Assembly: GCF_000003815.2 (NCBI RefSeq)
Contig: NC_049979.1
Coordinates: 19,974,291 to 20,038,290 of the forward strand
DNA from: Branchiostoma floridae
Lineage: Eukaryota > Chordata > Leptocardii > Amphioxiformes > Branchiostomatidae
Reading direction: 5' to 3'
DNA: 64,000 nt
The position numbers and the translations under genes are program-made. Positions 33,687-52,239 of this stretch are shown piece after piece (the first letter of the stretch is position 1; the number at the start of each line of letters is the position of its first letter). The notes under the pieces are model-generated. The model was not told where the DNA came from. It was given only the letters and a program-made list of their open reading frames with translations, and did no database searches.

Positions 33687-36383
33687 ATGACGCTGCGTGC
33701 GACGTTCAGTGCTGCACTTCTGCTGCTGTCTGGCTTCCAGGCTTATCAGGACCTTTTCATTTCGGGTGAAAACGTCGAAATACCCGAGGATGTGTCAGTT
33801 GGTAGCACAGTGGTGCGGCTCAGGGATATTCTTGCGGCCAACTTTAGTTCTGCAGATGACCGCAATGGGAACATCACAGCAGGGGATGATTCGGGGCGAT
33901 TTGGGTTTCGTGCTCAGGACTTGACGCTGATCGTGGCGGCTCCGCTGGACTACAAGTTAGAGCCGCGGTACAACCTGACGGTGGAGCTGACTGATAACGG
34001 CAACAATAACGTTCTGTACGTGACTATCATCATCGTAGTCATGGACGTGCCGGGATACCCGCCATTCTATAACAAACGGTGTGAAACGCCAGTCCTTCGG
34101 GAAAGAGAGAGCGACAGGGTCCTCGGGGATTATACCGTACTCAGCAGTGATGACGGGTTTAAAGCGTATGTTAACGGAGAGGTTATTTATTCGTACGCTT
34201 ATGACTATCTTCAGACCAATTTGCCTAGGAGGTACGCGGCTAACTTCGTGTTGAAAGGTGATTGTTCCGGGAGATTCGTTGGAAGCACAAACGCACTTTT
34301 AGGCGACTTGTCTGCACTCATCGTGGTGCTTCAAGGACAACAAGGCAGAGCCGAATTCATATGTCGGGACCGAGATGGGAGGAACAAGGGGAACATTACT
34401 GTATTGGACATTTCCCTCGATGACGTCGACTTGCCTCAATGGGCACAAAGTCGTCAGTTCCAAACGGACGAAGGTGATAGTTTTTTCTTTATATTTCAGT
34501 TGATTGAAATATGGTCCACATCATCATACTGGATACGATGTGGCGGTAACTTCAGGCCCCCCGTTGCGGACGGGACCAGTCTGGTGGAATGGACATTTCA
34601 CTACAACGTAACAGGGTGTCCTGTGGGATCCTACGGTGTGTACTGTGACAAGAACTGTGTTTGCCAGAACGGAGCCCGTTGCCATGGCTTTAACGGTGCG
34701 TGTGAGTGCCGTCCGGGCTGGAGAGGGAGGGCATGTGACGTCTCCTGGCCTGAGGTCGTCATCATCGCGTCACCTGGCGATTCAGTCGTGAAGTACATCG
34801 GTACCAATCTGACTTTGACCTGCCTGGCCCCACACATCCACGTAGCAAATATGACATGGGCTTATCAAGCAGGAAAAGGACGTGATGACACAAAGGTCAT
34901 TGAAGAAGGGACAGTACAGAACAGGTCCATCATCTTTCAGCCGATCCTAGAATCAGCTAACGGCAGGTATAGTTGCATGGTACAGGACGAAGATGGTGAA
35001 CTGTTTAATGCGACTTTCACTCTAAACGCCACGGAATGCCGACCAAACTATCATGGGGAAGATTGCAGCCAAGTGTGTGACTGTGAGTACGGAGGGACGT
35101 GTGACAGGTGGGAGGGTTGTCTGTGTCCTCCGGGCCGTCATGGAGACAGGTGTGAGCACATATGCGCACCTGGCACATTCGGGTGGAACTGTAGTATGAG
35201 CTGCCATTGTGAAAACAACGCCAGGTGTGATCCAGGCAATGGCAGCTGCATTTGTGCTGAAGGACAGTCGGGTGAGTTTTGTCAGATCGTCTCCATCAGT
35301 CCTGATGATAATCAAGTCGTTGTTGTAGTGTTGGCGGCCGTTATCCCGATCATTGCTATAATCGGTTGTATCGCGACTGGAGTCCTGGTAAAACGACGCC
35401 ACCGCCGCCCAAGAAGTCCGGACCGCCCAACAGTGGACTTAGAACTGGCGTCCGTTATGGAAACTCTTTCATCATGGGAAGTAGAGAAAGAGGACATTCG
35501 TTTCGAGCACATGATCGGTGAGGGAGAGTTCGGCCATGTTGTGCGGGGAAGACTGCGCGTGCCCGAAGGATACGAGGTTTTGGTGGCCGCCAAAAGTATC
35601 CGACCTGACCGCATGACAGCCTCTGCTGTCCGTGACTTTCGCCGCGAAATGACCATCCTCACTAGGATCCACGAGGACAAAGATGGACACCCGAATGTGG
35701 TGAAGCTTTATGGGGTCGTGACTAAGTCTGAGCCGCAGTACATCCTTGTAGAGTACGCGAGCCATGAAGAACTGAGGCGGTACCTGTGGAGTCTGCGTGA
35801 ACATCTCAAGACCACGGGGAATAGCAAACTGCTGGAACGGCTAGGTTTTGCTTGTGACGTTGCCAGTGGCTTATCGGAGCTGGCACGTCTGAAGATCGTG
35901 CACCGGGACATCGCAGCTCGTAACGTCGTCATCAGCGACAGAAAGGTGGCAAAGATCGCGGATTTCGGGCTGTCGCGCGACGTTTATGTTTCCTCTGCGT
36001 ACGAACGCACCAACCGGGGCGGGGAGGAGGAGCTATTGCCGCTAAAATGGATGGCTCTGGAGTCGTTACGGGACGGAGTGTACACGTGCGAGAGTGACGT
36101 GTGGTCGTACGGCGTGCTACTGTGGGAGATCGCCAGCTTTGGGGAGGAGCCGCGCTATGCTGGTGGTCCGATGCACCCGGACGTGTGCACACTGTTGGAG
36201 CTGCTGAAGAAAGGAGTCCGTCTGCAGCAGCCGGAGAACTGTCCCAAGTCTGTGTACAAGATCATCAGGTCCTGCTGGATAGTCGACCCATCGAAGCGAC
36301 CGACGCCTGATGAACTGTTTCAGAAGATGGACCAAATGAGGCCACAAAGACAAGCTGCGATCCTGGCCAATAGCAATCGTTGA
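33687..36383 (+). CDS. Receptor tyrosine kinase 1: cadherin-like/EGF/Ig/EGF-EGF/TM/kinase, single coding exon
   Basis: 898 residues without intron. Signal peptide 1-19 (LLLLSGFQA). Cadherin-like domain about 26-126 (VEIPEDVSVGS, LDYKLEPRYNLTVELTDNG). A region of unknown fold about 130-308. EGF 311-350. Ig domain about 355-448 (Cys in LTC and YSC, Trp in MTW). Two EGF repeats 451-532. Membrane helix about 543-568 followed by KRRHRR. Tyrosine kinase about 605-885 with GEGEFG loop 611-616, Lys636, Glu654, HRD 739-741, Asn746, DFG 759-761 and activation-loop Tyr767 and Tyr772. All catalytic residues are present, so kinase activity is expected. The tail after the kinase is only about a dozen residues, leaving few docking tyrosines. 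I cannot place it in a named vertebrate RTK family; the domain mix recalls both Ret (cadherin-like) and Tie (Ig/EGF). Ligand unknown. First of three tandem copies. Confidence 0.93.
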   Translation: MTLRATFSAALLLLSGFQAYQDLFISGENVEIPEDVSVGSTVVRLRDILAANFSSADDRNGNITAGDDSGRFGFRAQDLTLIVAAPLDYKLEPRYNLTVELTDNGNNNVLYVTIIIVVMDVPGYPPFYNKRCETPVLRERESDRVLGDYTVLSSDDGFKAYVNGEVIYSYAYDYLQTNLPRRYAANFVLKGDCSGRFVGSTNALLGDLSALIVVLQGQQGRAEFICRDRDGRNKGNITVLDISLDDVDLPQWAQSRQFQTDEGDSFFFIFQLIEIWSTSSYWIRCGGNFRPPVADGTSLVEWTFHYNVTGCPVGSYGVYCDKNCVCQNGARCHGFNGACECRPGWRGRACDVSWPEVVIIASPGDSVVKYIGTNLTLTCLAPHIHVANMTWAYQAGKGRDDTKVIEEGTVQNRSIIFQPILESANGRYSCMVQDEDGELFNATFTLNATECRPNYHGEDCSQVCDCEYGGTCDRWEGCLCPPGRHGDRCEHICAPGTFGWNCSMSCHCENNARCDPGNGSCICAEGQSGEFCQIVSISPDDNQVVVVVLAAVIPIIAIIGCIATGVLVKRRHRRPRSPDRPTVDLELASVMETLSSWEVEKEDIRFEHMIGEGEFGHVVRGRLRVPEGYEVLVAAKSIRPDRMTASAVRDFRREMTILTRIHEDKDGHPNVVKLYGVVTKSEPQYILVEYASHEELRRYLWSLREHLKTTGNSKLLERLGFACDVASGLSELARLKIVHRDIAARNVVISDRKVAKIADFGLSRDVYVSSAYERTNRGGEEELLPLKWMALESLRDGVYTCESDVWSYGVLLWEIASFGEEPRYAGGPMHPDVCTLLELLKKGVRLQQPENCPKSVYKIIRSCWIVDPSKRPTPDELFQKMDQMRPQRQAAILANSNR

Positions 36384-37199
36384 CTTTTCTTTCATACCAA
36401 TCTCTCCCTTATCTTATACTGGTTAAACGCAACAATCTATATCGAAGCCAATGAACCATGGGAATCTATTGAAGTTCGGAAATGAATCATTATTTTTTAA
36501 CAGTGGTGTTTGCTAAAATTGTAAATAATTTTCTGTGGGTGAACAGTGAACAATGTTGTCCAGAGTGCCTCATCTTTCGAGGTGGACGGATGCCTACACT
36601 TGATCAAATACAGGCCTGGGATGCAAAAAAATCCATACAGTCGGATTAGGTTTAATTTATTTAGATCTATTCTGACTACTCAACTTTCCATGATATTGCA
36701 TATAATGTGTATTTCATTTACTAATTGATATGATTTATTTGATTCGATATTGTATCGTTTTATGGGGGAACGTGTCTAAAAGTTGAGACAGCGTTGGTGT
36801 AATAATAAATGTAATGCCCATACTTGTTTCGTTCCAACTTTTTTCATCCGAACAAAATTTGCAGTTAGAGGCCGCAGTTACGGCTGATACATCATTTTGA
36901 AAATTTTTGAAAATGTTCGTTACATGTTTCAGAGCAGTTTAATTTAATTCTACATGTTTCAGAGTAGTCTGAAACATGGCTAAACTTTACAATAAAAATG
37001 AAGCTCCGATTTATGAAATTTTTAGAGATATTTATGATATAGATATTTTTGGAACTTAAATGGACAGAAATATTACGCACAGGGTAATTTATGCGGACAT
37101 ATTTTTGCCTCTGTTAAAACGGAGATGATGTTTACTGCTGCGTTTAGAACGTTCAATTCGGACTACGAATGACATACAACAAGTCATTCAAGTCTGTAA
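36384..37199 (+). other. RTK1 3' UTR and flank
   Basis: The first 130 bases resemble the 3' flanks of the other two genes (shared ttttctttca, then gccaatgaacc and aatctattg). 36611-36750 matches 54223-54370 downstream of RTK3 (atacagtcggattagg, then tgatttatttga). A candidate polyadenylation hexamer AATAAA is at 36804-36809. No gene is seen in the remainder. Confidence 0.5.
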
Positions 37200-37731
37200 C
37201 GTTGACGACTATATATACGCCACCACCATTCCTTTTCACTCTCATGCTGACTTGAAGGGGAAGAAGTCTCACGTGCGGGCGAATCGGACGCCTTGAATTG
37301 GAGTAAATTTAACGTTGTTCTACCAAATCAGTACATTTTAAGATAAGAAAAGAGGCTCTCTGCGACATAGATATCCGCTTTCCTATATCTTTTACAATTT
37401 ACAGTACACAGTATATTGTTTTGCTCATTCATTTTGCGGCTTCTTTGTAGTATTTATAGTATGGAGTTTTTTGGTTGGACGAAAATTGATGCACGCGGAT
37501 GTCAATCATTTAATGAAGTCAGATTGGCCTTTCGGAAGTCTTGTGACTGGAAAAGTTTCAGGGCGAAGTTCATGAGGCAAAGGTCAGGTCTGTTTGTTGG
37601 TTCGGGGCCAGTATCCAGGATAGGGACTATGAAGTACAGGCTTGGCGAAGTTTTTATTCGACTCGCACGTTTTTTAATGAACTCGTTTGTTGGTATTTAG
37701 TCCGGGATCATCAAGGCGGATCTTGTAACAG
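37200..37731 (+). promoter_or_regulatory. Possible promoter and first non-coding exon of RTK2
   Basis: A TATA-like ctatatatacg lies at about 37209-37219. About 0.5 kb further, tcttgtaacag|gtaagtac gives a near-consensus donor at 37731. A transcript starting near 37240 and spliced to the acceptor at 38955 would supply the RTK2 leader. A 94-codon frame (37416-37700) inside has no recognisable domain. The other RTK genes have no matching segment, so the link is tentative. Confidence 0.3.
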
Positions 37732-38039
37732 GTAAGTACAAACATGTTTGTCAATTTTTCTATTTTGCCAGCTTTTCGTTTTCTTTGTGTGTACTACTTT
37801 TTTTAGTGTATCATAGCTCTTTGGACAGGGAACTGGTATTAAACTGGTCACAAATGGAAAAAAAATATGTAGCTCATTTAAATTCAAAGAAATTTGTAAC
37901 ACTTTTCAATGATGATGTACATCAAATCACTGCTTACACTCTTAACAGCCTCTTTGTCACTTGATGCATGAAACGAGAAGACTTCCTCCAGCGTCATCTC
38001 ACTGTGTCAAACGAATAAAACAACAGGTAATTCAATACA

Positions 38040-38450
38040 GTCTGTGTCAGCTCTAGCCAATAGCAGCCTCGTGCCGTGATGCAGGAAAGAGAACGAAGTT
38101 CCCCTAACTATTGTACTCAGTAACAGTTGATAGCGTGTCAGACACAAATGACTCATGTAGCAGAACAGTAAATAGGATACATCGGCATGCCTTCATAACA
38201 AGGAACAACAGAATTACATAGTGTACAAAATAAATAGTCATATGTCTCTTAGTAAATGCTTTGCTCTGAGATAGAGTATACATTGGAATCAACTTGTTAC
38301 TCTCTACGTAGTGGGTAGTCATCATCGTGCTAAGCTAGATGACGTCCGTTGGTTATTTTGTAGCTTAACTGGACTCAGTTTCAATCACACTTGTCGAACT
38401 TTACTTTTACTTGATGTTGAGGAAATCAACATTACGCCTCAGACATATAT
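38040..38450. repeat. Upstream segment shared with 59510-59830
   Basis: Colinear blocks shared with the 59.5-kb segment include gcagaaca, gtacaaaata, cgtagtgggcagta (one change), tagatgacgtc-gttgg and ctttacttt. Here it lies 0.6 kb before the RTK2 leader; the partner lies upstream of the LRR receptor gene. Confidence 0.6.
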
Positions 38451-38699
38451 ATTATACTTGTACTTGTTTTCAAATATTTAGCCGAAAGTTACTAAAATGT
38501 TGGGTGGAAACACAGAGAGATGGGTAGGATGATTCATAGGCGCGACCAGATGGTCACTTACAATCGGACCATTTCGTATGCTTATTCAAGCACATTGTAA
38601 TATGGATCCATGGTTTTATATTTCTACCAAAAGAGAAGTACCAACTAACACAGTTTAGCCAACTAAAAAAAAAACACTACCGGAAATTTGTTTCCCATG

Positions 38700-38900
38700 T
38701 TATAGATCAGCCCAACTACGACGTACTTACGTACTATCTCGTCGCGTTGTACCACTGATAGTTCGGCTAACAACAACAACAACAACAACAAGGCGTAAGT
38801 ACTTTTTAAAGGCACCGTTTTCGTGTGAGATCTTCAGATCAGTTGTATCCTTGATGTCGAGGACATGCACTTGCTTTTCAAAGGCACCTTTTCAACATGA
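38700..38900. repeat. RTK-upstream repeat R1, short copy
   Basis: Contains cgtcgcgttgtaccactgat, gttcggctaacaacaacaac and aaaggcaccgttttcgtgtg. The middle of the element is missing. Confidence 0.65.
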
Positions 38901-38955
38901 ATTTTTCAATTGGAAGAGTCGTACAAGTAAATTTGTTGTTTTGGTTTTTGTCCAG

Positions 38956-39079
38956 CCCTAAGAGAGGAAGAACAAGAAAGTGGTGTACACCGAAGAGAAG
39001 TGACGAGAAATGGAAAGAACCAGTCAGAAGCGAAAGAAAACGTGGTTTATACAGAGGCCCGTTGCTATAGGAAGATAAG
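38956..39079 (+). promoter_or_regulatory. RTK2 leader after conserved 3' splice site
   Basis: The acceptor ggtttttgtccag ends at 38955. The 124-base leader ends gaagataag before ATG, identical to the last bases before RTK1. Confidence 0.5.
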
Positions 39080-41791
39080 ATGACGCTGCGTGTGACGTTT
39101 TGTACTGTACTTTTGCTGCTATCGGGCGTCCAGGCTTATCAGGACCTTCTTATTTCGGGTGAAAACGTCGAAATACCCGAGGATGTGTCAGTTGGTAGCA
39201 CAGTGGTGCGGCTCAGAGATTTTCTTGATGCCAGCTTTAGTTCTGCAAAAGACGGCAATGGGACGTTTTGGTCGGTAAACATCACCACAGGGGACGATTC
39301 GGGGCGGTTTGGGTTTCGTGCGGAGAACTTGGCGTTGATCGTTGCGGCTCCGCTGGACTACAAGTTAGAGCCGCGGTACAACCTGACGGTGGAGTTGACT
39401 GATAACGGCAACGATAACGTTCTGTACGTGACCCTTGTCATCGTAGTCATGGACGTGCAGGGATACCCGCCATTCTATAACAAACGGTGTGAAACGCCAG
39501 TCCTTCCGGGCAGAGAGAGCGACAGGATCCTCGGGGATCATACCGTACTCAGCAGCGATGACGGGTTTTATGCGTCTTTTAACGGAGAGAGAGTGGCGTC
39601 GTACAGAGACTATCTTCAGTACGGTATGCCTATGACGTACGCAGCTAATTTCGTCTTCAACGGTGATTGTTCCGTAAGATTCGTCGGTAGCGCAAAGGAA
39701 TTCACAAATTCAGACGAGACTTTAATAGCTGCAGTGCTTCAAGGACCACGACAACAAGGCAGGATCGAACTCATATGTCATGACCGAGATGGAAGGAGTA
39801 AAGGGTACATCACTATATTGGACATTTCCCTCGACGACGGCTTGCCTCAATGGGCGCAAAGTCGTCAGTTCCAAACGGACGAAGGTGCCCGATTTTTCTT
39901 TATCATAGAGTTACTTGAGATGTGGTCCACATCACCATACTGGATACGATGTGGCGGCAACGTGGAGTCTCTCAGTGGAGACGGGACCAATCTGTTTGAG
40001 TGGACATTTCACTACAACGTAACAGGATGTCCCGAGGGCTGGTATGGTGCGTACTGTGACAATGATTGCGTTTGTAAGAACGGTGCCCGTTGCCATGGCT
40101 TTAACGGTGCGTGTGAGTGCCGTCCGGGCTGGAGAGGACGAGCCTGTGACGTCTCCTGGCCTGAGGTCGTCATCATTGCGTCACCTGGCGAGTCTGCCGT
40201 GAAGTACATCGGTACCAATCTGACTTTGACCTGCCTGGCCCCACACATCCACGTAGCAAATATGACATGGGTTTATCGAGCAGGAAAAAGACATGACGAC
40301 ACAAAGGTTATTAAAGAAGGGACAGTACAGAACAGTTCCATCATCTTTCAGCCGATCCTAGAATCAGTTAACGGCAGATATAGTTGCATGGTACAGGACG
40401 AAGATGGTGAACTGTTTAATGCGACTTTCACTCTAAACGTCACGGAATGCCGACCCAACTATTATGGGGAAGATTGCAGCCAAGTGTGTGACTGTGAGTA
40501 CGGAGGGACGTGTGACAGGTGGGAGGGTTGTCTGTGTCCTCCGGGCCGTCATGGAGACAGGTGTGAGCACATATGCGCACCTGGCACATTCGGGTGGAAC
40601 TGTAGCATGAACTGCAATTGTGAAAACAACGCCAGGTGTGATCCAGTCAATGGCAGCTGCATTTGTGCTGAAGGACAGTCGGGTGAGTTTTGTCAGATCG
40701 TCTCCATTCCAGGTAATAATCAAGTCGTCGTTGTAGTGTTGGCGTCCGTTATCCCGACGATTGCTATTGTCGGTTGTATCGTGACTGGAGTCCTGGTAAA
40801 ACGACATCACCGTCGCCCAAGAAGTCCGGAACACCCAACAGTGGACTTAGAAATGACGCCCCTCATGGAAACCTTTTCATCATGGGAAGTAGAGAAAGAG
40901 GACATTCGTCTCGAGCACATGATCGGTGAGGGAGAGTTCGGCCATGTCGTGCGGGGAAGACTGCGCGTGCCCGAAGGATACGAGGTTTTGGTGGCCGCCA
41001 AAAGTATCCGGCCTGACCGCATGACAGCCTCTGCTGTCCGTGACTTTCGCCGCGAAATGACCATCCTCACCAGGATCCACGAGGACAAAGATGGACACCC
41101 GAATGTGGTGAGGCTTTATGGGGTCGTGACTAAGTCTGAGCCTCAGTACATTCTTGTAGAGTACGCGAGCCATGAGGACCTGCGGCGGTACCTGTGGAGT
41201 CTGCGTGAACATCTCAAGACCACGGGGAATAGCAAACTGCTGGAACGGCTAGGTTTTGCTTGTGACGTTGCCAGTGGCTTATCGGAGCTGGCACGTCTGA
41301 AGATCGTGCACCGGGACATCGCAGCTCGTAATGTCGTCATCAGCGACAGGAAGGTGGCCAAGATTGCGGATTTCGGGCTGTCGCGCGATGTTTATGTTTC
41401 GTCGGCGTACGAACGCACCAACCTGGGCGGGGAGGAGGAACTGTTGCCGCTGAAGTGGATGGCCGTGGAGTCGTTACGGGACGGGGTGTACACGTGCGAG
41501 AGTGACGTGTGGTCGTACGGCGTGCTGCTTTGGGAGATCGCCAGCTTTGGGGAGGAGCCGCGCTATGCTGGTGGTCCGATGCACCCGGACGTGTGCACAC
41601 TGTTGGAGCTGCTGAGGAAAGGAGTCCGCCTGCAGCAGCCGGAGAACTGTCCCAAGTCTGTGTACCGCATCATCAGGTCCTGCTGGATAGTCGACCCATC
41701 GAAGCGACCGACGCCTGATGAACTGTTCCAGAAGATAGACCAAATGAGGCCTCAAAGACAAGCTGCGATCCTGGTCAATAGGATTTTATGA
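39080..41791 (+). CDS. Receptor tyrosine kinase 2: same architecture, single coding exon
   Basis: 903 residues, with signal peptide, cadherin-like domain, EGF, Ig, two EGF, one membrane helix and a kinase with GEGEFG, the catalytic Lys in VAAKS, HRDIAARN and DFGLSRDVY all intact. It carries five extra codons (TFWSV, 39263-39277) that RTK3 also has and RTK1 lacks. Compared with RTK1 and RTK3 the stretch about residues 155-305 is strongly diverged, and it lacks the VD pair before LPQW, while the kinase is almost unchanged. Ser/Asp-rich juxtamembrane and very short C-terminal tail as in RTK1. The divergent ectodomain middle suggests different ligand or partner recognition (inference). It lies 2.7 kb after RTK1 in the same orientation. 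Confidence 0.93.
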   Translation: MTLRVTFCTVLLLLSGVQAYQDLLISGENVEIPEDVSVGSTVVRLRDFLDASFSSAKDGNGTFWSVNITTGDDSGRFGFRAENLALIVAAPLDYKLEPRYNLTVELTDNGNDNVLYVTLVIVVMDVQGYPPFYNKRCETPVLPGRESDRILGDHTVLSSDDGFYASFNGERVASYRDYLQYGMPMTYAANFVFNGDCSVRFVGSAKEFTNSDETLIAAVLQGPRQQGRIELICHDRDGRSKGYITILDISLDDGLPQWAQSRQFQTDEGARFFFIIELLEMWSTSPYWIRCGGNVESLSGDGTNLFEWTFHYNVTGCPEGWYGAYCDNDCVCKNGARCHGFNGACECRPGWRGRACDVSWPEVVIIASPGESAVKYIGTNLTLTCLAPHIHVANMTWVYRAGKRHDDTKVIKEGTVQNSSIIFQPILESVNGRYSCMVQDEDGELFNATFTLNVTECRPNYYGEDCSQVCDCEYGGTCDRWEGCLCPPGRHGDRCEHICAPGTFGWNCSMNCNCENNARCDPVNGSCICAEGQSGEFCQIVSIPGNNQVVVVVLASVIPTIAIVGCIVTGVLVKRHHRRPRSPEHPTVDLEMTPLMETFSSWEVEKEDIRLEHMIGEGEFGHVVRGRLRVPEGYEVLVAAKSIRPDRMTASAVRDFRREMTILTRIHEDKDGHPNVVRLYGVVTKSEPQYILVEYASHEDLRRYLWSLREHLKTTGNSKLLERLGFACDVASGLSELARLKIVHRDIAARNVVISDRKVAKIADFGLSRDVYVSSAYERTNLGGEEELLPLKWMAVESLRDGVYTCESDVWSYGVLLWEIASFGEEPRYAGGPMHPDVCTLLELLRKGVRLQQPENCPKSVYRIIRSCWIVDPSKRPTPDELFQKIDQMRPQRQAAILVNRIL

Positions 41792-41930
41792 CTTTTCTTT
41801 CAGACTAATTTCTCCAATATAGAAGTTAAACTTATCAATCTACCAGTATTTTAAGCCGATGAACCATGAAAATCTATTGGTTATTCTTTATAAAAGCCTA
41901 GGCATATCTTTTTAACTATCTTTTTCTGCC

Positions 41931-42347: not shown

Positions 42348-42539
42348 TGGTAAATCATAGGAATTTCATTCTTGTGGCATTTGGATGTTAAGTAAAGGTA
42401 AACATCATTAGACTTAAATCATGCAAATAGGGGACTCATTTAAATCATTTGCTAGGGCATGCTAAAATTACCTTCTTTGCTCAGATCAGGCTTTCAGACA
42501 TTGAGCATTTGTTATTTTGTCAGAGTCATAGTACTTAAA

Positions 42540-43010: not shown

Positions 43011-44039
43011 GTTTTAAATCAGGCATCCGTTTGCATGGATATCTAATGATATGCCATTACCATTCTTTGTCGATGTCAGTTGTTTGAGAGTCCTTTTAAT
43101 GGACTTTCATCCTTTATGTAAATTAGATCGTGATTTGCCACTGATCATCTGATTATGTCCATGATCACTTAAGCTATCTAGATACTAATTGATAATCATG
43201 ACGACCATAATCTGGACCAGCTGTGGTCATGATTTTGGGTGGTAGATAGCTCTTTGGGAAGAGAGTAAGTGGTATAGGTTTGGTCTCCCTAGCTGCTTGC
43301 TTGGGAACTGCAGGGGTCGGTATAGTGTCAGATTTCAAAATGGAATAACTCAAGAAGGGGTTGATGGATCGTCATGATTTTTGGTATGTAGATAGCTTAT
43401 TAAGTGATGCTTCATATAGTTGAATAATAATTATGCAAATTGGGATCTAATTTGCATAAATAACGAGGAAATTGTAGGGCTATTGCAACGTGTGACATTG
43501 GTAAATGAGTTAGAGAAGGATATTGATAGACGAACATCATGCAAAGTATTCTGTATGTTCCATGTTGCAATTAGCCCTCAGGCAAGAACTTGCAAACTTT
43601 CTTTCTTTAAAATATTACAAGAATAGATGTTCAACACTCCAGTGACATACACATCACACATGTACCTCTCCACCCTCCCTACAAAGACTAATGATTAGAT
43701 TTTGGGCACCCTAGTAAGTCATTGCCATAAAATTTACACAAGCTCTTAATATTTCATGGAGGTATTAGGTCACCAAACTCTAGTTGATAAGACTTCGTGT
43801 GACTTTGTCAAATAACATATGAAATAAAATCTTTATGTCTACAGACATCTTTTTACATAACAAACCTGGTTTATTTGGCAAAGGTATGTGTTCGTGGAAC
43901 TCTAGTTTTAGGTTTTGGCAGTTTGCTGACCAACTGTTGTTTGAATGGAAGGTGAATCGGTTGTACAATATTTTCGTGCACTATCCTACGAAATGTGACA
44001 ATTAAAGCTTCTTTGTTGGATTCTCTCCTTTACTGTCAA
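43011..44039. other. Non-coding interval between R1 and R2 repeats
   Basis: No gene is seen. Two diverged stretches (about 43180-43250 and 43335-43400) share catgatttt-gg-tgtagatagct and may be remnants of Helitron-type internal monomers. Confidence 0.4.
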
Positions 44040-44465
44040 CATGCCTAAGATGTTAAACATTGTTGCACTGCCTGTCACGGTATCGCATCCGAGGGCAAAC
44101 CTGGCTTGCTGCTCCGTTCTGCACCACTTGGCGCTTTCCCTGCTCGCTTGGTTGTTCCCAGTAACATTGCATTTTTCTTGTCCAAACTGTTGTCATTGGG
44201 TTCAAGTTTCCCACGTCGCGATCGGTGGCTTTGACAGCTTGACTCAAGCTACAATACAAGTAAAGTGAAAGGTAAACCGCTTAGACGGTATTTGCAACTG
44301 CTCTCTCGTTACGGAGTCATTTATGCACTGATCTTTGCAGACAGTAGTGGCATTGACAGATCAGCACTGCAAGCTTGAAGGTCGCTGACGTCGACGTTGT
44401 CGCCAACTTGTCTCACAGGTGGGAATGTAATCTACATACACTAGTACAAGTTCTAGGTAAGGGAA
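44040..44465. repeat. RTK-upstream repeat R2, copy 2, left part (interrupted)
   Basis: Holds ttgctgctccgtt, cgctttccct, aaactgttgtcattgggttc, gacagatcagcactgcaagc and caacttgtctcacaggtggg, shared with the copies at 47.2 and 48.2-48.8 kb. It stops at tctaggtaagggaa and resumes at 46307 (tgaagctgtcttctg) after inserted Helitron-like DNA. Confidence 0.8.
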
Positions 44466-45185
44466 CTAGAAAGGCCGACATTTGCTTGGGAGCAAATACA
44501 GCATATTGCAATCCATCTTCATATGCATGCCAATCCCAAATTTAACAATTTTTGATTGATGTACACCATAGGTGTGAATAGAGCCCTGTGGCTACATAAC
44601 ATAGGCACCTTCATACCAAATTTCAGACCATTTGGTTTTCATTCATGGGTACAAGAGCCAAAACTTAACATTTTTAGTCCGTAAATGGCAAAAAATCCCA
44701 AAATTCATCAATTTAAAGTATTGTATGCCCAAAGTGAAAATGAAGTACTGTGGGTACTTGCCAGACACACTTTCGTGCCGAATTTCAGGTCATTAGGTTT
44801 TCATACAAGGGTATAGGAGCCAAAAGTATTCATTTTTTGTCAAAAATAGCCAAAACCCTAAAATAACTCATTTTTAAAGTGATCTATGGAGAAAGAGATG
44901 ATGGTTTTCTGTGCTGATATGTCCAATGCACCTCTGTACCAAATTTCAGGTCATTATGGTTTAATACCAGGGCACAGGGGCCCAAAATATATATATTTTG
45001 TCTAAAAATGACCAAAAACCCTAAATATCAAAATTTCTAAGGCCTCTATCAAAAAAGTGAAAAAAACACCTGGGGGTATTTGCTATCCCTACCGCCATGC
45101 CAAATTTCAGCTCATTTGCCACAAAAGTGAAAAAGTTGAATCGACTTGAAGATTTTGACAGGAGAAGAAGAAACTCAGCAAAAAC
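44466..45185 (-). mobile_element. Non-autonomous Helitron-like element 1 with ~160-bp internal repeats
   Basis: Read on the minus strand the 3' end is canonical: a perfect 7-bp hairpin ATTTGCT-CCCA-AGCAAAT (44480-44497), ten bases, then CTAG (44466-44469), matching the Helitron CTRR terminus. The body has about 3.5 diverged monomers of roughly 160 bases, each with ccaaatttcaggtcattt near one end. No Rep/helicase frame. Organisation resembles the pearl/HINE elements of molluscs (established class; membership is inference). Confidence 0.75.
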
Positions 45186-46306
45186 TAGAAAGGCCGACAT
45201 TTGCTTAGGAGCAAATACAGCATATTGCAATCCATCTTCATCCTTGAGAAAATCCCAAAATTCAACAATTTGAAATAATGTTTGCTGAAAGGGAAAAGGA
45301 AGTACTGTGGGCACTTGTCCTACACACCTTCATGCCGAATTTTAGGTCATTTGGTTTCAATATAAGGGCATAGGAGCCAAAAATATACATTTTTAGTTAA
45401 AAATGGCTAAAAATCCCAAAGTAACTCATTTTATAAGTGCTCTATGAAGAAAGTGTTGATGGGGTCCTGTTGTCATATGTCCAATTTACCTTTGTACCAA
45501 ATTTCAGGTCATTTGGTTTACATACAAGGGCAAAGAAGCCAAAATATACATTTTTTAGTCAAAAATGACTGAAAACCCCAAAATAACTCATTTTTCAAGT
45601 GATCTATGAAGAAAGTGTCGATGGGGTCCTGTGAGCATATGTTCAATGCACCTCTGTACCAAATTTCAGGTCATTTGGTTTCTATACAAGGGCATAGGAG
45701 CAAAAAATATACATTTTTAGTAAAAAATGGCCAAAAACCCTAAAATAACTCATTTTTGGAGTAAACAATGAATGAAGCGTTGATGGGGTTCTGTGGTCAT
45801 ATGTCAAACGCACCCATGTACCAAATTTCAGGTCATTTGGTTTTAATACAAGGGCATAGGAGCCAAAAATATACATTTTTAGTCAAAAATGGCCAAAACC
45901 CCTAAAATAACTCATTTTTGAAGTGATCTATGAAGAAAGTGTTGATGGTTTTCTGTGCTCATATGTCCAATGCACCTCTGTACCAAATTTCAGGTCATTA
46001 GCTTGTAATACCAGGGCACAGGGGCCCAAAATATATATATTTTGTCTAAAAATGACCAAAAACCCTAAATATCACAAATTCTAAGGCCTCTATTAAGAAA
46101 GTGAAAAAAACGCCTAGGGGTATTTGCTATCCCTGCCTTCATGCCAAATTTCAGCTCATTTGGCCCAAAAATGAAAAAGTTGAATCCATTTGAAGATTTA
46201 TTCAGGAGAAACAAAGAAAAAACAGTATATTGCAATCCCATACTATGTATGGATTGCAATATAACAATATATTGCAATCCCATACTATGTATGGATTGCA
46301 ATATAA
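45186..46306 (-). mobile_element. Non-autonomous Helitron-like element 2, abutting element 1
   Basis: It has a second CTAG end (45186-45189), a hairpin ATTTGCT-CCTA-AGCAAAT (45200-45217) and about 5.5 monomers (motif starts near 45333, 45497, 45658, 45820, 45980 and 46142, period about 162). Its 5' side ends with two 38-base near-palindromes built from tatattgcaatcc (about 46226-46305). Host sequence resumes at 46307, so elements 1 and 2 together sit between A (44465) and T (46307). Confidence 0.75.
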
Positions 46307-46450
46307 TGAAGCTGTCTTCTGTCGCTGTGAACAGGGTTTGAAAAGCTACATAGAAAGTTAGTATGCGGTTATTATTTTAGAAAACATGCACTGATGTCTC
46401 CTGTTTATATGTAAAACGACAAAAACAGTGTTATGCACTTTAATACTGAC
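46307..46450. repeat. RTK-upstream repeat R2, copy 2, right part
   Basis: Resumes exactly where 44465 stopped: tgaagctgtcttctgtcgct, ttgaaaagctacat, ttattattttag and cactgatgtctcc, as in the uninterrupted copies at 31.07 and 47.41 kb. Confidence 0.8.
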
Positions 46451-46489
46451 AGAAGTTTGCCCTTAAGCTTAATGAATTCTTAAGGCTTA

Positions 46490-46960
46490 CTTAAACCGAG
46501 TAAGCCTTAAGTTGGGTGCAACTTGGGTGAACTTCACTCGTGATAACTCGCAATGGTGCCTCGTACGTGGCGGAAGTACGTCGTAATTGAATTTTTACAG
46601 GAATGAAAAATCATAGATAATATGTCCTACGGTTGCGTTGTACTACTGATAGTTCGCCTAACAGCAACAACAACAACTAATGTTGTTTGTTACCTATTAT
46701 TATCCTGTCCATGTCAAACTCCATTTGTATTGTCTTTGTCTCCGTCAACATAGCTAGTCCTTTGTAATAGCCACAAACTTGTTGGACAGCCCAACCGATA
46801 AATAAAACAACAACAACATGGTAGCCTGAAATACGTCATTTGTACAGGCACCATTTCCGTGTGAGACCTTTCGTTGTGTCTCCATGCCATGGTGTCGAGG
46901 ACATGTAAAGGTACCATTTCCCTCAAAAGGCACCATTTCCTTCAAAAGGCACAATCACCA
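46490..46960. repeat. RTK-upstream repeat R1, copy
   Basis: Complete R1 with gtacgtcgtaattgaatttt, ctgatagttcgcctaacagc, cttgtaatagccacaaactt and five caccatttcc units. Confidence 0.8.
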
Positions 46961-47179
46961 CATTCTCTCCCTCGGCAGTGGAGATGAAAATAAAATAGAA
47001 ATGAGTAGTTGTTTACGAGTTGTTTTCCAGCTGCTTTCGAATTCTGATCGGTTGTGCGTGCTTGTTTTGACAGGTTTTAGGCGGTTTCGAGTTGCTTTCG
47101 GTGTTATTCGAGTTGTTCCCGGTAGATTTCAAGTTGTTTACCGCTGTTTTCGGTTGTTTTCGGTAGTTTTCGGTATTTA

Positions 47180-47570
47180 GTGAGACCGGAAGCAAACTGT
47201 TGTCATTGGGTTCAAGTTTCCCACGTCAGTTGCTTTGACAGCTCGCCTCAAGTTACAAGTAAAGTGAAGAGGCAGGTAAACCAGTTAGACTGCGTTTGCA
47301 GACAGTAGTGACATTGACAGATCAGCACTGCAAGCTTGAAGATCACTGACGTTGTCGCCAACTTTTCGTCACAGGTGGGAATATAATCTTTTTAGTGTAC
47401 AGGTTCGAGGAAATGAAGCTGTCTTCTGTCGCTGTGAACTGGATTGAAAAGCTACATGAAGGTATTACGCAGTTCTTATTTTAGAGAACATACACTGATG
47501 TCTCCTGTTTATATGCAAAACGACAAAAAAGTGTCCTACACTTACTGACAGAAGCTTGCTCTTGTGCTTA
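47180..47570. repeat. RTK-upstream repeat R2, copy 3
   Basis: Runs from gcaaactgttgtcattgggt through cacaggtgggaatataat and atgaagctgtcttctgtcgc to cactgatgtctcctg. Each R2 copy contains cac(a)g|gtgggaat, which could act as a splice donor, but no frame supports an exon. Confidence 0.8.
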
Positions 47571-47599
47571 ATGATTCTTCTGGTTTTCAAAATGGCGAT

Positions 47600-48200
47600 A
47601 ACGCCGAAAATGTCGTTGCGTTGCACTACTGATAGTTGCCTAACAACAACAACAACTAATTTTGTTACCCATTAATATCCTGTCCTTGTCAAATTCCATT
47701 TGAATTGTCTTTGTCTTCGTCAGCATGGCTAGTCCTTTGTAATAGCCACAAACTTGTTTGGCAACCGATAAATAAAACAACAACACCAACAACACGGTAT
47801 CCTGAAACTCCTTTTGTACAGGCACCATTTCCGTATGAGACCTTTCGTTGTGCCTCCATGCCATGGTGTCGAGGACATGTAAAGGCACCATTTCCTCCAA
47901 AAGGCACCATTTCCTCCAAAAGGCACCATTTCCTCCAAAAGGCACCATTTCCTTCAAAAGGCACCATTTCCTTCAAAAGGCACCATTCCTTTCTAAAGCT
48001 TAAAGGCACCATTTCCTTCAAAAGGCACCATTTCCTTCTAAAGCTTAAAGGCACCATTTCCTCCAAAAGGCATCATTTCCTTCAAAAAGGCACCATTTCC
48101 TTCTAAAGCTTAAGGCCATTTCCTTCTAAAGCTTAAAGGCACCACTTCCTTCAAATGCATCATTTCCTTCGAAGGTTCAAAGGCGCCATTTCCGTGTGTG
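47600..48200. repeat. R1 copy with an expanded caccatttcc minisatellite
   Basis: After the standard R1 body, 47820-48195 is an array of about 17-20-bp units, consensus aaaggcaccatttccttc, roughly sixteen copies with some longer units holding taaagctt. Long frames on both strands here (rich in WCLLEEMVPF-type repeats) are products of the array. Confidence 0.85.
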
Positions 48201-48780
48201 AGTGTGTGACTAGGGCAATCCTTGCTGCTCCGTTCCGCACCACTTGGAGGCGTTTGATGTTTCTAGCCAGTGTTGTTTTTCCCATACAGGGAACAGTAAA
48301 TCCAAGTGAGAGTTCTTCCTTATCCTATATAAGTAAGTTTGTGCCTCATTCTGTTCAGTTGACTCATGCTTGTAGCTCTAGCGGTGGCGCTTTCCCTATT
48401 CGCTTGTTGTTCCCACTAGCATTGATTTTCTTTTCCCATTGTTCAACGTAAGCAAACTGTTGTCACTGGGTTCAAGTTTCCCTCCTCAGTGACTTTGACA
48501 GCTCGCCTCAAGTTACAATACAAGTAAAGTGAAAAGACAGGTAAACAGGTTATTAGTGACAGTAGTGACATTAATAGATCAGCACTGCAAGCTTGAAAAT
48601 CGCTGAAGTTGTCACCAACTTGTCTCACAGGTGGGAATATCCTCTAGTCACCAACTTGACTCACGGGTGGAAATATCCTCTATTTTTGCACAGGTTCTAG
48701 GTGAGGGAGTGAAGCTGTCTTCTACTAAGATCTGTCACTGTAAATAGGGTTTGAAAAGCTACACACAGAGTTACCATGTA
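48200..48780. repeat. RTK-upstream repeat R2, copy 4
   Basis: Shares gctgctccgttccgcaccac and cgctttccct with 44.1 kb, then aaactgttgtcactgggttc, gatcagcactgcaagcttga and the paired caacttg(t/a)ctcac(a/g)ggtgg blocks (the latter locally duplicated at 48615-48675). Confidence 0.75.
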
Positions 48781-48789
48781 GTTATTTTG

Positions 48790-49145
48790 TTCAGGCACCA
48801 TTTCCATGTGAGACCTTTCGTTGTGTATCCATGCAGTGGACATGTAAAGGTACCATTTCCTTCTAAATGCACCATTTCCTTGGCCTTCTAAAGGTACTAT
48901 TTCCGTGTAAGGCAGTTTGCATTGTGCCTCTATACCATGGTGTCAAGGACATGTAAATGCACCATTTCCCTCTAAATCTAATGGCACCATTTCACATGTA
49001 AAGGCACCATTTCCTTCTAAAGCACAATTTCCTTCTAAAGGCACCATTTCTTTCTAAAGGCACCATTTCCTTCTAAAGCACAATTTACCATTTCCTTCTA
49101 GAGGCACCATTTCCTTCTTAAGACACCATTTCCTTGGGTGGTGTA
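48790..49145. repeat. R1 remnant with caccatttcc minisatellite
   Basis: About a dozen units of cacc-atttccttctaaagg type, some truncated, directly before the leader region of RTK3. Confidence 0.8.
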
Positions 49146-49402
49146 GGTGGAGTAACTCATGGATGGCGATACTGGCTCGCTAGGCTATCTGCCCATCTGA
49201 TGTCATGCCGCATGCCATAAAATGTGCTGGAAAAAAAAAAAGACAAACTCATTTTACATATTGTACTCATAGACAGAGAAATTTATGTTGGTTCATTCTT
49301 GCTATCTGTGTTAGTAGACATGACTTTTCAACATGAAGTTTTCAACTGTAACAAAAGAGCCGCGTTTATGTAGTAATTTCTGATTGTTTGTGTTTTGTTC
49401 AG

Positions 49403-49545
49403 TCCCAAAGAAGACGTGATCCCAGCCGGACAAATTAACAGCAAGAAGAAACAGAAAGTGGCGTCCAAGAGGAAAGGATTCACCTCGTCATCAGCGAGAG
49501 GAAATGTGGTAACAGGCTAGTTCTACGTTACTCTACGAAGATTAG
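49403..49545 (+). promoter_or_regulatory. RTK3 leader after conserved 3' splice site
   Basis: The acceptor tttgtgttttgttcag ends at 49402, 143 bases before the start codon. The leader aligns with RTK1 (aacagaaagtggc, tcatcagcga), but frames are not preserved, so it is untranslated. Confidence 0.5.
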
Positions 49546-52239
49546 ATGATGCTGCGTGTGGCGTTCTGTACTGCACTTCTGCTGCTGTCTGGCTTCCAGG
49601 CTTATCAAGACCTTTTCATTTCGGGTGAAAACGTCGAAATACCCGAGGATGTGCCAGTTGGTAGCAAAGTGGTGCGGCTCAGAGATTTTCTTGATGCCAG
49701 CGTTAATTCCACAGATAAACGCAATGGGACGTTTTGGTCGGTAAACATCACCGCAGGGGACGGTTCGGGACGTTTTGGGGTTCGTGCGGAGAACTTGACG
49801 TTGATCGTGGCGGCTCCGATGGACTACAAGTTAGAGCCGCGGTACAACCTGACGGTGGAGCTGACTGATAACGGCAACAATAACGTTCTGTACGTGATCA
49901 TTGTCATCGTAGTCATGGACGTGCCGGGATACCCGCCATTCTATAACAAACGGTGTGAAACGCCAGTCCTTCTGGGCAGAGAGGGCGACAGGGTCCTCGG
50001 GGATTATACCGTACTCAGCAGTGATGAGGGGTTTTATACGTATGTTAACGGAGAGATTATTTACTCGTACGCTTATGACTATCTTCAGACCGATTTGCCA
50101 ATGACGTACCCGGCTAATCTCGTCTTGAAAGGTGATTGTTCCGGAAGATTCGTTGGAAGCACAAGCGCACTTATAGACGACTTGTCTCCACTCATCGTGG
50201 TGCTTCAAGGACAACAAGGCAGAGCCGAATTCATATGTCGGGACCGAGATGGGAGGAACAAGGGGAACATTACTGTATTGGACATTTCCCTCGATGACGT
50301 CGACTTGCCTCAATGGGCACAAAGTCGTCAGTTCCAAACGGACGAAGGTGATAGTTTTTTCTTTATATTTCAGTTGATTGAAATATGGTCCACATCATCA
50401 TACTGGATACGATGTGGCGGTAACTTCAGGCCCCCCGTTGCGGACGGGGCCTGGCTGGTGGAATGGGCATTTCACTACAACGTAACAGGGTGTCCTGTGG
50501 GATCTTACGGTGTGTACTGTGACAAGGATTGTGTTTGTCAGAACGGTGCCCGTTGCCATGGCTTTAACGGTGCGTGTGAGTGCCGTCCGGGCTGGAGAGG
50601 ACGAGCCTGTGACATCTCCTGGCCTGAGGTCGTCATCATCGCGTCACCTGGCGATTTAGTCGTGAAGTACATCGGTACCAATCTGACTTTAACCTGCCTG
50701 GCCCCACATATCAACGTAGCAAATATGACATGGGCTTATCAAGCAGGAAAAAGACGTGATGACACAAATGTCATTGAAGAAGGGAAAGCACGGAACAGTT
50801 CCATCAGCTTTCAGCCGATTCTAGAGTCAGCTAACGGCAGGTATAGTTGCATGGTACAGGACGAAGATGGTGAACTGTTTAATGCGACTTTCATTCTAAA
50901 CGCCACGAAATGCCGACCCAACTATCATGGGGAAGATTGCAGCCAAGTGTGTGACTGTGAGTACGGAGTGACGTGTGACAGGTGGGAGGGTTGTCTGTGT
51001 CCTCCGGGCCGTCATGGAGACAGGTGTGAGCACACATGCGCACCTGGCACATTCGGGTGGAACTGTAGTATGAACTGCAATTGTGAAAACAACGCCAGGT
51101 GTGATCCAGTCAATGGCAGCTGTATTTGCGCTGAAGGACAGTCGGGTGAGTTTTGTCAGATTGTTTCCATTTCTGGTAATAATCAAGTCGTCGTTGTAGT
51201 GTTGGCGTCCGTTATCCCGACCATTGCTATAATCGGCTGTATCGTGACTGGAGTCCTGGTAAAACGACGCCACCGTCGCTCAAGAAGTCCAGAACACCCA
51301 ACCATGGACTTAGTCTTAGAAACATTTTCATCATGGGAAGTAGAGAAAGAGGACATCCGTTTAGAACACATGATCGGTGAGGGAGAGTTCGGCCATGTCG
51401 TACGGGGAAGACTGCGCGTGCCCGAAGGATACGAGGTTTTGGTGGCCGCTAAAAGTATCCGGCCTGACCGCATGACAGCCTCTGCTGTCCGTGACTTTCG
51501 CCGCGAAATGACCACCCTCACCAGGATCCACGAGAACAAAGATGGTCACCCGAATGTGGTGAAGCTTTATGGGGTCGTGACTAAGTCTGAGCCGCAGTAC
51601 ATCCTTGTAGAGTACGCGAGCAATGAAGAACTGAGGCGGTACCTGTGGAGTCTGCGTGAACATCTCAAGACCACGGGGAATAGCAAACTGCTGGAACGGC
51701 TAGGTTTTGCTTGTGACGTTGCCAGTGGGTTATCGGAGCTGGCACGTCTGAAGATCGTGCACAGGGACATCGCAGCTCGTAATGTCGTCATCAGCGACAG
51801 GAAGGTGGCAAAGATCGCTGATTTCGGGCTGTCGCGCGACGTTTATGTTTCCTCTGCGTACAAACGCACCAACCGGGGCGGGGAGGAGGAGCTGTTGCCG
51901 CTGAAGTGGATGGCCCTGGAGTCGTTACGGGACGGGGTGTACACGTGCGAGAGTGACGTGTGGTCGTACGGCGTGCTGCTGTGGGAGATCGCCAGCTTTG
52001 GGGAGGAGCCGCGCTATGCTGGTGGTCCGATGCACCCGGACGTGTGCACACTGTTGGAGCTGCTGAGGAAAGGAGTCCGTCTGCAGCAGCCGGAGAACTG
52101 TCCCAAGTCTGTGTACAAGATCATCAGGTCCTGCTGGATAGTCGACCCATTGAAGCGACCGACGCCTGATGAACTGTTTCAGAAGATGGACCAAATGAGG
52201 CCACAAAGACAAGCTGCGATCCTGGCCAATAGGATTTGA
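49546..52239 (+). CDS. Receptor tyrosine kinase 3: same architecture, single coding exon
   Basis: 897 residues, with the same order of signal peptide, cadherin-like, EGF, Ig, EGF, EGF, membrane helix and kinase. G-loop, VAAKS lysine, HRDIAARN and DFG are intact; the activation loop has YKRTNRGG instead of YERTNRGG. The start reads MMLRVAFC; the second Met has the better match to the other copies. It is a mosaic: the TFWSV codons (49729-49743), NCNCENN and GNNQ near the membrane agree with RTK2, while 50189-50448 is identical base for base to RTK1. The juxtamembrane is a few residues shorter. Located 7.8 kb after RTK2, with most of that gap filled by R1/R2 copies and Helitron-like DNA. Confidence 0.93.
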   Translation: MMLRVAFCTALLLLSGFQAYQDLFISGENVEIPEDVPVGSKVVRLRDFLDASVNSTDKRNGTFWSVNITAGDGSGRFGVRAENLTLIVAAPMDYKLEPRYNLTVELTDNGNNNVLYVIIVIVVMDVPGYPPFYNKRCETPVLLGREGDRVLGDYTVLSSDEGFYTYVNGEIIYSYAYDYLQTDLPMTYPANLVLKGDCSGRFVGSTSALIDDLSPLIVVLQGQQGRAEFICRDRDGRNKGNITVLDISLDDVDLPQWAQSRQFQTDEGDSFFFIFQLIEIWSTSSYWIRCGGNFRPPVADGAWLVEWAFHYNVTGCPVGSYGVYCDKDCVCQNGARCHGFNGACECRPGWRGRACDISWPEVVIIASPGDLVVKYIGTNLTLTCLAPHINVANMTWAYQAGKRRDDTNVIEEGKARNSSISFQPILESANGRYSCMVQDEDGELFNATFILNATKCRPNYHGEDCSQVCDCEYGVTCDRWEGCLCPPGRHGDRCEHTCAPGTFGWNCSMNCNCENNARCDPVNGSCICAEGQSGEFCQIVSISGNNQVVVVVLASVIPTIAIIGCIVTGVLVKRRHRRSRSPEHPTMDLVLETFSSWEVEKEDIRLEHMIGEGEFGHVVRGRLRVPEGYEVLVAAKSIRPDRMTASAVRDFRREMTTLTRIHENKDGHPNVVKLYGVVTKSEPQYILVEYASNEELRRYLWSLREHLKTTGNSKLLERLGFACDVASGLSELARLKIVHRDIAARNVVISDRKVAKIADFGLSRDVYVSSAYKRTNRGGEEELLPLKWMALESLRDGVYTCESDVWSYGVLLWEIASFGEEPRYAGGPMHPDVCTLLELLRKGVRLQQPENCPKSVYKIIRSCWIVDPLKRPTPDELFQKMDQMRPQRQAAILANRI

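What the first reader, a model, noticed from the sequence alone, without database searches (positions are those of the whole stretch)
33687..52239. Tandem trio of receptor tyrosine kinases with an unusual cadherin-like/EGF/Ig/EGF/EGF ectodomain
Seen: three 897-903-residue proteins with signal peptide, a cadherin-like N-terminal domain, a 150-180-residue region of unknown fold, EGF, Ig, two EGFs, one TM and an intact kinase. Known RTKs with cadherin-like domains (Ret) lack Ig/EGF, and those with Ig plus EGF (Tie) lack cadherin. I cannot place this combination in a named family. The variable middle segment and nearly fixed kinase suggest receptors diversifying for recognition while keeping one output.
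Basis: partly seen in the sequence, partly recalled or inferred. Interest (0 to 1): 0.75.

Follow-up and report, generated by a model that had tools for sequence, protein, structure and literature searches.

The report
Giant family of variable lancelet receptors
Three look-alike cell-surface signalling receptors in this window belong to a family of more than 70 long intact-looking genes in the same animal, each keeping a nearly fixed signalling end while one outer segment differs sharply from gene to gene, as expected of a built-in repertoire of recognition receptors.

Summary
Three single-exon genes (898, 903, 897 aa) encode signal peptide, cadherin domain, a ~165-residue segment of unknown fold, EGF, Ig, two EGFs, TM and a complete tyrosine kinase. 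The trio is a small sample. In the same 513-Mb genome 85 kinase matches lie in open frames of 780 aa or more; 76 of the 85 match this ectodomain, 74 of them without a stop. The 40 family sequences read share the layout, truncations aside; several clades add a third EGF. The kinases are one clade (100/100) beside TIE, RET, FGFR, VEGFR and KIT, inside none; Ig-EGF-EGF is closest to Tie2. The unknown segment behaves as a cassette: neighbours with 96% identical kinases can have 35% identical segments, silent sites included, and types recur among neighbours. In the trio itself this is weak. A subclade (22 long frames, 34 sites in all) has HGD instead of HRD. Best reading: a lancelet-expanded, Tie-like receptor kinase family, germline-diversified for recognition, perhaps immune. 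Ligand, expression, cassette fold and occurrence in other animals are untested; a 2008 amphioxus kinase catalogue could not be read.

The parts
33687..36383 (+). copy A: single-exon receptor tyrosine kinase gene, 898 aa
   Evidence: open frame; Pfam; family match (C1:20007977-20010661)
39080..41791 (+). copy B: single-exon receptor tyrosine kinase gene, 903 aa
   Evidence: open frame; Pfam; family match (C1:20013370-20016075)
49546..52239 (+). copy C: single-exon receptor tyrosine kinase gene, 897 aa
   Evidence: open frame; Pfam; family match (C1:20023836-20026526)
49603..49950 (+). copy C, cadherin domain (residues 20-135)
   Evidence: Pfam Cadherin (at the curated cut-off); PDB phmmer hits Fat4, CELSR1, cadherin-3 and cadherin-23
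49987..50481 (+). copy C, variable cassette of unknown fold (residues about 148-312)
   Evidence: boundaries from identity profiles of other clusters; no convincing Pfam or PDB match; alignment
34113..34607 (+). copy A, variable cassette (90% identical to that of copy C)
   Evidence: A-C dS 0.05 in residues 136-310; identity
39521..40018 (+). copy B, variable cassette (65-66% identical to A and C)
50482..51168 (+). copy C, EGF1-Ig-EGF2-EGF3 (residues 313-541); Ig-EGF2-EGF3 aligns collinearly with Tie2 Ig2-EGF1-EGF2
   Evidence: Pfam; PDB; alignment
51187..51258 (+). copy C, transmembrane segment (about residues 548-571, by eye)
   Evidence: hydrophobic stretch followed by KRRHRR
51355..52197 (+). 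copy C, tyrosine kinase domain (residues 604-884), catalytic residues intact
   Evidence: Pfam; motifs; alignment; trees

Best explanation
The three genes are one tandem cluster of a very large lancelet-expanded family of single-exon, Tie-like receptor tyrosine kinases with an N-terminal cadherin domain. SHOWN: 74 long stop-free frames share the ectodomain and kinase; the kinase and EGF parts are under purifying selection and alike between neighbours; the segment between cadherin and EGF1 (residues ~148-312) exists as strongly different types that recur among otherwise nearly identical genes, with silent sites divergent as well. INFERRED: neighbouring genes exchange sequence (gene conversion or unequal crossing-over), so the signalling and stalk parts stay alike while cassette types are swapped or escape homogenisation. 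INFERRED: the cassette, with loops of the Ig domain, binds the ligand; binding clusters receptors, the two conserved activation-loop tyrosines are phosphorylated, and the kinase passes on one shared signal, mostly through other proteins because there is almost no cytoplasmic tail. INFERRED and least certain: the ligands are foreign or self-marker molecules, so the family is a germline-encoded recognition repertoire, perhaps innate-immune.
For: Family size: of 141 kinase matches (127 rows tallied, 14 weakest dropped), 85 lie in open frames of 780 aa or more; 76 of the 85 match the ectodomain of copy C, L053 or L051, 74 of them without a stop. Conserved machinery: lysine and DFG in 40 of 40, HRD in 38 of 40; activation-loop tyrosines 767 and 772 in every row that has a letter there; 0-28 residues after the kinase. 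Kinase dN/dS 0.03-0.46 in 15 pairs. Cassette: mean pairwise identity 17% against 57% for the kinase (38 of 40 rows); L038 and L039 have kinases 96% and cassettes 35% identical; their nucleotide identity is 93-100% over residues 31-135, 40-69% over 151-315 and 87-100% over 316-375. Fourfold-site differences, cassette/rest.19/.10.26/.11.34/.12.42/.12.33/.09 in five of six clusters. Tie link: Ig-EGF-EGF profile hits TEK at 1e-26. Context: genes present or absent between individuals are enriched for protein tyrosine kinase activity, cell adhesion and immune terms in two lancelet species (PMC12373286, section 9 read).
Against: No ligand, expression or binding data. The cassette ratio of replacement to silent change is below 1 (0.41-0.60): no sign of pervasive positive selection by that measure. 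In the window trio the strict fourfold test is not significant (0.112 against 0.090), and pairs that share a cassette type (such as A-C, L008-L010, L014-L016) show no excess. Elevated silent divergence could reflect old alleles or a local mutation bias as well as exchange; no formal recombination test was run. The Tie resemblance of the ectodomain rests partly on cysteine-rich EGF modules (bias 14-23 bits per stretch); the kinase tree does not single out TIE, and by profile the best PDB kinase is FGFR3, ahead of RET. The pangenome paper does not name these genes in the parts seen.
Confidence: 0.5

Rival explanations
1. Cell-identity (self-recognition) code like clustered protocadherins: the variable extracellular segment mediates matching between like cells in neurons, epithelia or gametes, and the shared kinase reports contact. 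Tandem single-exon ectodomains homogenised outside the specificity region are the hallmark of that system (recalled).
For: N-terminal cadherin domain; tandem arrays with a localised variable segment.
Against: One cadherin match only, and the variable part lies outside it: mean cadherin identity 37% against 17% for the cassette; the 76 confirmed members are spread over 14 contigs.
Confidence: 0.2
2. Ordinary ligand-diversified growth-factor receptors: a lineage-specific expansion of a Tie- or Ret-like receptor for a matching set of lancelet ligands in development or physiology, with divergence of the middle segment by relaxed or ordinary selection.
For: Kinase beside the TIE/RET/FGFR/VEGFR/KIT group; replacement/silent ratio under 1 in every part of the protein in the pooled counts.
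Against: Silent sites of the segment are about 1.9 to 3.6 times as divergent as the rest in five of six clusters, which selection on the protein alone does not explain; copy number far beyond any developmental RTK family known to me; broken copies beside intact ones.
Confidence: 0.18
3. Retrogene burst: single-exon copies arose by retroposition of one processed transcript and then duplicated in tandem; most are evolutionary noise in the course of decay.
For: Coding region in one exon in the members read; homology between copies ends close to the coding region in several pairs (A-B -51 to +91; B-C -20 to +97).
Against: 74 stop-free frames of 780 aa or more and kinase dN/dS 0.03-0.46 in 15 pairs speak against general decay; in other pairs homology runs 1 kb or more into a flank (L008-L010, L014-L016, L044-L045). 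As an origin story it remains possible and is compatible with the best explanation.
Confidence: 0.07

Closest known systems
TIE receptors (TEK/Tie2, TIE1)
   Same: Ig followed by EGF modules aligns collinearly with Tie2 Ig2-EGF1-EGF2; several clades have three EGFs after the Ig, as Tie2 has; the kinase as sister of TIE is not rejected (p-AU 0.185; 0.424 with TEK alone).
   Different: Cadherin domain and cassette in front; no fibronectin match; an extra EGF before the Ig; kinase on its own long branch; single-exon coding regions; dozens of copies.
RET
   Same: Cadherin-type domain plus tyrosine kinase; best single-stretch PDB kinase hit of copies A and C; kinase as sister not rejected (p-AU 0.17).
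   Different: RET has four cadherin-like domains and a cysteine-rich domain (PMC7619074, passages); here one cadherin match, Ig and EGFs. With a profile of 37 family kinases FGFR3 scores above RET.
CAD96CA / Stitcher of insects
   Same: Receptor kinase called cadherin 96ca and 'Ret-like' (PMC11908783, passages).
Clustered protocadherins
   Same: Works alike in genome design: tandem genes, ectodomain in one exon, a variable specificity part against a homogenised remainder (recalled).
   Different: No kinase; many cadherin repeats; variability lies inside cadherin repeats (recalled).
Plant receptor kinases of innate immunity
   Same: Large, clustered receptor-kinase repertoires (recalled); kinases lacking the HRD arginine are associated with innate immune signalling across kingdoms (PMC8463890, abstract start in search listing), and a subclade here has HGD.
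   Different: Unrelated ectodomains; serine/threonine kinases (recalled); parallel only.

Membership tests
Receptor tyrosine kinase | signal peptide, ectodomain, single TM, intact tyrosine kinase | tested here: met
   signal peptide and TM by eye
TIE family | kinase groups with TEK and TIE1 | tested here: inconclusive
   not in the best tree; held together p-AU 0.185 (TIE1 sequence recalled); p-AU 0.424 with TEK alone
TIE family | Ig-Ig-EGF(3)-Ig-FN3(3) ectodomain order (recalled) | tested here: not met
   only the Ig-EGF-EGF part matches; cadherin in front; no FN3 match reported
RET | kinase groups with RET | tested here: inconclusive
   p-AU 0.17; p-AU 0.246; best trees put RET with FGFR1, KDR and KIT
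RET | four cadherin-like domains and a cysteine-rich domain, no Ig or EGF | tested here: not met
   one cadherin match, plus Ig and EGF
FGFR and VEGFR/KIT families | kinase inside the family | tested here: not met
   FGFR1 p-AU 0.013, KDR+KIT 0.012 (KIT recalled); FGFR1 0.017, KDR 4e-5. FGFR3 is the best PDB hit of the kinase profile
AXL, MET, INSR | kinase groups with the family | tested here: not met
   p-AU 0.009, 0.004, 0.007 (AXL and MET recalled); in the smaller tree INSR was not rejected (0.089)
CAD96CA/Stitcher | kinase groups with insect CAD96CA | not tested
   no insect sequence available in the tools
Germline-diversified immune receptor family | copy-number and presence/absence variation between individuals, expression in immune tissue, binding of non-self | not testable with these tools
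   one assembly only; indirect support from PMC12373286

The most novel reading that the evidence does not exclude
Lancelets carry a germline-diversified recognition system made of receptor tyrosine kinases: dozens of one-exon genes whose recognition cassettes are shuffled between neighbours by sequence exchange while the stalk and kinase are kept uniform, including a subclade with kinases lacking the HRD arginine, in parallel with immune receptor kinases of plants. It would be a receptor-kinase counterpart, in an invertebrate chordate, of the variable immune receptor families of vertebrates.
Probability: 0.4. Interest if true: 0.9.

Novelty: new variant of a known kind. Interest (0 to 1): 0.74.

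Why it matters
Animal receptor tyrosine kinases are thought of as small sets of conserved developmental receptors. A chordate with more than 70 long, stop-free copies of one type, with outer segments of strongly different types, would show that animals, like plants, can build recognition repertoires on receptor kinases. The clear cassette boundary makes it testable: long-read population data show exchange directly, and cassette-swap receptors in cell lines show whether the cassette sets specificity. It also bears on where Tie and Ret came from, since one family combines a cadherin front with a Tie-like Ig-EGF block and a kinase next to both.

Tried and rejected
Rejected: member of FGFR, VEGFR/KIT, AXL, MET or INSR families (AU tests; INSR was not rejected in the smaller tree); assembly duplication of one gene (window copies differ by dS 0.11-0.19 over the whole gene, and stand in tandem); general decay. 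Tried without result: fold of the cassette by profile search of Pfam and PDB; structure prediction (18 attempts, machine full each time), so no fold search was made; a search for intron-bearing Ret or Tie genes in this genome (not answered: RET query; TEK query 105, 109, 113, 118, 125, 128, 131, 133, 137), so the parent gene is unknown; the L055 query (81 mistyped, 85 not answered) was dropped. Positive selection by replacement/silent ratio: not found for the cassette. Considered and not claimed: 5' non-coding introns; possible 3' splice sites stand upstream of the start in L027, L029, L030 and L033 (by eye), untested.

Literature: a large lancelet family of this kind was looked for; no title or abstract start in those listings describes one. 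The 2008 amphioxus tyrosine kinase catalogue (doi 10.1093/molbev/msn132; title seen in reference lists) is not held, so earlier description of these genes is not excluded.
Full report
WHAT IS THERE. Three open frames without introns lie head to tail on the + strand: A 33687-36383 (898 aa), B 39080-41791 (903 aa), C 49546-52239 (897 aa). Each has a signal peptide, a cadherin domain, about 165 residues of unknown fold, EGF, Ig, two EGFs, a transmembrane helix and a tyrosine kinase with a very short tail (signal peptide and helix by eye). The cadherin match is weak in the trio (24.8, 25.2 and 28.8 bits against a cut-off of 28.8), but passes the cut-off in relatives L033 and L053, and PDB hits are Fat4, CELSR1, cadherin-3 and cadherin-23. 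Lysine, HRD and DFG of the kinase are present in all three.

HOW MANY. The window lies at C1:19974291-20038290 of a 513,431,437-base assembly in 431 contigs; that size fits my memory of the Branchiostoma floridae chromosome assembly, and no call tested the species. Copy C as query gave 88 matches. The Pfam kinase model gave 141 matches; I tallied 127 rows by script, the 14 dropped being the weakest. Of the 127, 85 lie in open frames of 780 aa or more, 83 of these without a stop inside the match. Of the 85, 76 also have an ectodomain match to C, L053 or L051 at the same place, 74 of them without a stop; 9 were not reached by these queries. One of the 74 (C1:380743, L024) has a kinase match over only 161 of 258 positions; the other 73 cover at least 190. 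L016 and L022 hold runs of N. The searches score only their best candidates, so a full count may be higher. Large tandem groups lie at C8:24.05-24.14 Mb, C7:24.41-24.45 Mb, C12:0.60-0.98 Mb and C10:15.16-15.17 Mb. Broken or partial copies lie among them.

ONE LAYOUT. I read 40 family sequences at full or near-full length: L021 is cut at its start by the edge of the locus, L015 starts after the signal-peptide region, L016 and L022 hold N, L024 has an incomplete kinase. Five more were read later (L052 ends at a stop within the kinase). Across the 40 the cysteines of EGF1, Ig, EGF2 and EGF3 are 97-100% conserved. Members on C12, C10, C17, C7 and C8, and L047 on C1, have a third EGF after the Ig (by eye); L046 has lost part of it. 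Lysine and DFG are kept in 40 of 40 and HRD in 38 of 40 (L016 YRD, L049 HGD). Two activation-loop tyrosines are present in every row with a letter there, and 0-28 residues follow the kinase.

THE CASSETTE. Mean pairwise identity is 57% for the kinase, 48% for EGF-Ig-EGF-EGF, 37% for the cadherin domain and 17% for residues 150-310 (38 of 40 rows). In the C12 group (nine rows) kinases are 86-96% identical, while cassettes fall into types 31-41% identical to each other (some pairs of types 53-56%) and mostly 89-95% identical within a type (L039 and L045 64%): L038 and L039 have 96% and 35%; L041, L042 and L044 share one type. Nucleotide identity of L038 and L039 is 93-100% from residue 31 to 135, 40-69% from 151 to 315 and 87-100% from 316 to 375; it is also low in the signal-peptide window (47%) and falls to 67-70% in the Ig at 391-420, the second, smaller variable block of that group. 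Silent sites tell that this is not only selection on protein: at fourfold sites the cassette against the rest differs by 0.325/0.090 (C12, 28 pairs), 0.424/0.121 (C18, 3), 0.336/0.124 (C5, 3), 0.262/0.111 (C1 at 3.3 and 0.38 Mb, 10), 0.192/0.100 (C4, 3) and, not significant, 0.112/0.090 in the window trio (3) (50 pairs in six clusters, not independent of each other). Pairs that share a type, such as L008-L010 (0 of 64), L014-L016 and L021-L024, show no excess. By the NG86 method the trio shows it: cassette dS 0.37 (C-B) and 0.41 (A-B) against kinase dS 0.12-0.13, while A-C have 0.05 against 0.10, so A and C share a recently common cassette and B carries another. L008 and L010 have identical cassettes, yet EGF1 dS 0.36. 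This mosaic is what exchange between neighbours leaves; no formal recombination test was run. The ratio of replacement to silent change in the cassette is 0.41-0.60, so pervasive positive selection is not shown. Profiles of the cassette find nothing convincing in Pfam or the PDB. The region starts right after the cadherin end with a conserved YPPxYNxxCETP, and cysteines 137, 198, 231 and 290 are conserved in 90-100% of rows.

WHERE THE KINASE BELONGS. In a tree of 12 family members with 13 references the family is one clade (100/100) beside a clade of TIE, RET, FGFR1, KDR and KIT (86/81), the two together at 99/95; the SRC and ABL1 outgroup did not fall on one side of a branch. Holding the family together with TIE (p-AU 0.185) or RET (0.17) is not rejected; FGFR1 (0.013), KDR+KIT (0.012), AXL (0.009), MET (0.004) and INSR (0.007) are. 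A first tree with 17 members and 9 references agrees on the single clade, TEK (0.424), RET (0.246), FGFR1 (0.017), KDR (4e-5) and EGFR (0.026), but did not reject INSR (0.089). RET and EGFR letters come; TEK, KDR, FGFR1 and INSR were confirmed; the others are recalled. Against a plain Ret link: RET is the best single-stretch PDB hit for copies A and C, but FGFR3 for the profile of 37 kinases. No other lancelet or insect kinase could be added. The profile of Ig-EGF2-EGF3 (24 members) finds Tie2 first (E 1e-26, 97 bits), ahead of another EGF protein (3e-18), with one stretch running through Ig2, EGF1 and EGF2 of Tie2; EGF composition bias lowers the weight of this. So the family is Tie-like in its lower ectodomain, cadherin-bearing like RET at its tip, and shown to be a member of neither.

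A SUBCLADE WITHOUT THE HRD ARGININE. L049, L053 and L054 read HGD. A DNA pattern for HGDVAARN has 34 sites in the genome and none for the reversed control; 22 of the 34 lie in long stop-free family frames on C7, C8, C11, C15 and C18. Kinases lacking this arginine are associated with innate immune signalling across kingdoms (PMC8463890, abstract start in listing); here it is only a parallel.

HOW IT LIKELY WORKS. Shown: large family, fixed output part, strongly different types of one outer part, purifying selection. Inferred: the cassette is the main binding surface; binding clusters receptors and turns on the kinase, which signals through other proteins since there is almost no tail. Most uncertain: the ligands. 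In two lancelet species genes that vary in presence between individuals are enriched for protein tyrosine kinase activity, cell adhesion and immune functions (PMC12373286, passages and section 9), which fits recognition of non-self better than a fixed developmental role; the parts seen do not name these genes. A cell-identity code of the protocadherin kind is the main rival.

ORIGIN. Coding regions are single-exon in the members read. Homology between copies stops near the coding region in several pairs (A-B -51 to +91, B-C -20 to +97, A-C -402 to +117), but runs 1 kb or more into a flank in others (L008-L010, L014-L016, L044-L045). Retroposition followed by tandem duplication is possible; no answer came to the searches for an intron-bearing relative.

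NOVELTY. Seven literature searches (listings) showed no description of this family; the 2008 amphioxus kinase catalogue is not held, so its authors may have listed some of these genes. I rate it a new variant of a known kind.

Noticed in passing
L049, L053, L054; 34 genome sites: A subclade of the family has HGD instead of HRD in the catalytic loop, with the aspartate kept: 22 long stop-free frames and 12 further sites.
   Followed up: partly
window 32654-33070 (+): Fragment of a LINE-type reverse transcriptase (zf-RVT, E 9e-10) just upstream of copy A.
   Followed up: partly
window 63301-64000 (+): Leucine-rich-repeat protein in two overlapping frames, running off the window end; could be a Toll-like or other LRR receptor.
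   Followed up: no
window 44550-46195: Array with 162-nt spacing between copies B and C, copies 60-92% alike.
   Followed up: no
C12:17735875 and C12:22892764: Two kinase matches with the same score and the same open-frame length 5 Mb apart: a recent segmental copy or an assembly duplication.
   Followed up: no
C16:16614241 and C16:16619170: Two neighbouring kinases on opposite strands in open frames of 900 and 624 aa with the third- and second-highest kinase scores; not reached by the family queries, nature unknown.
   Followed up: no
L046, residues after EGF3: The third post-Ig EGF present in its C12 relatives is largely missing in L046.
   Followed up: no
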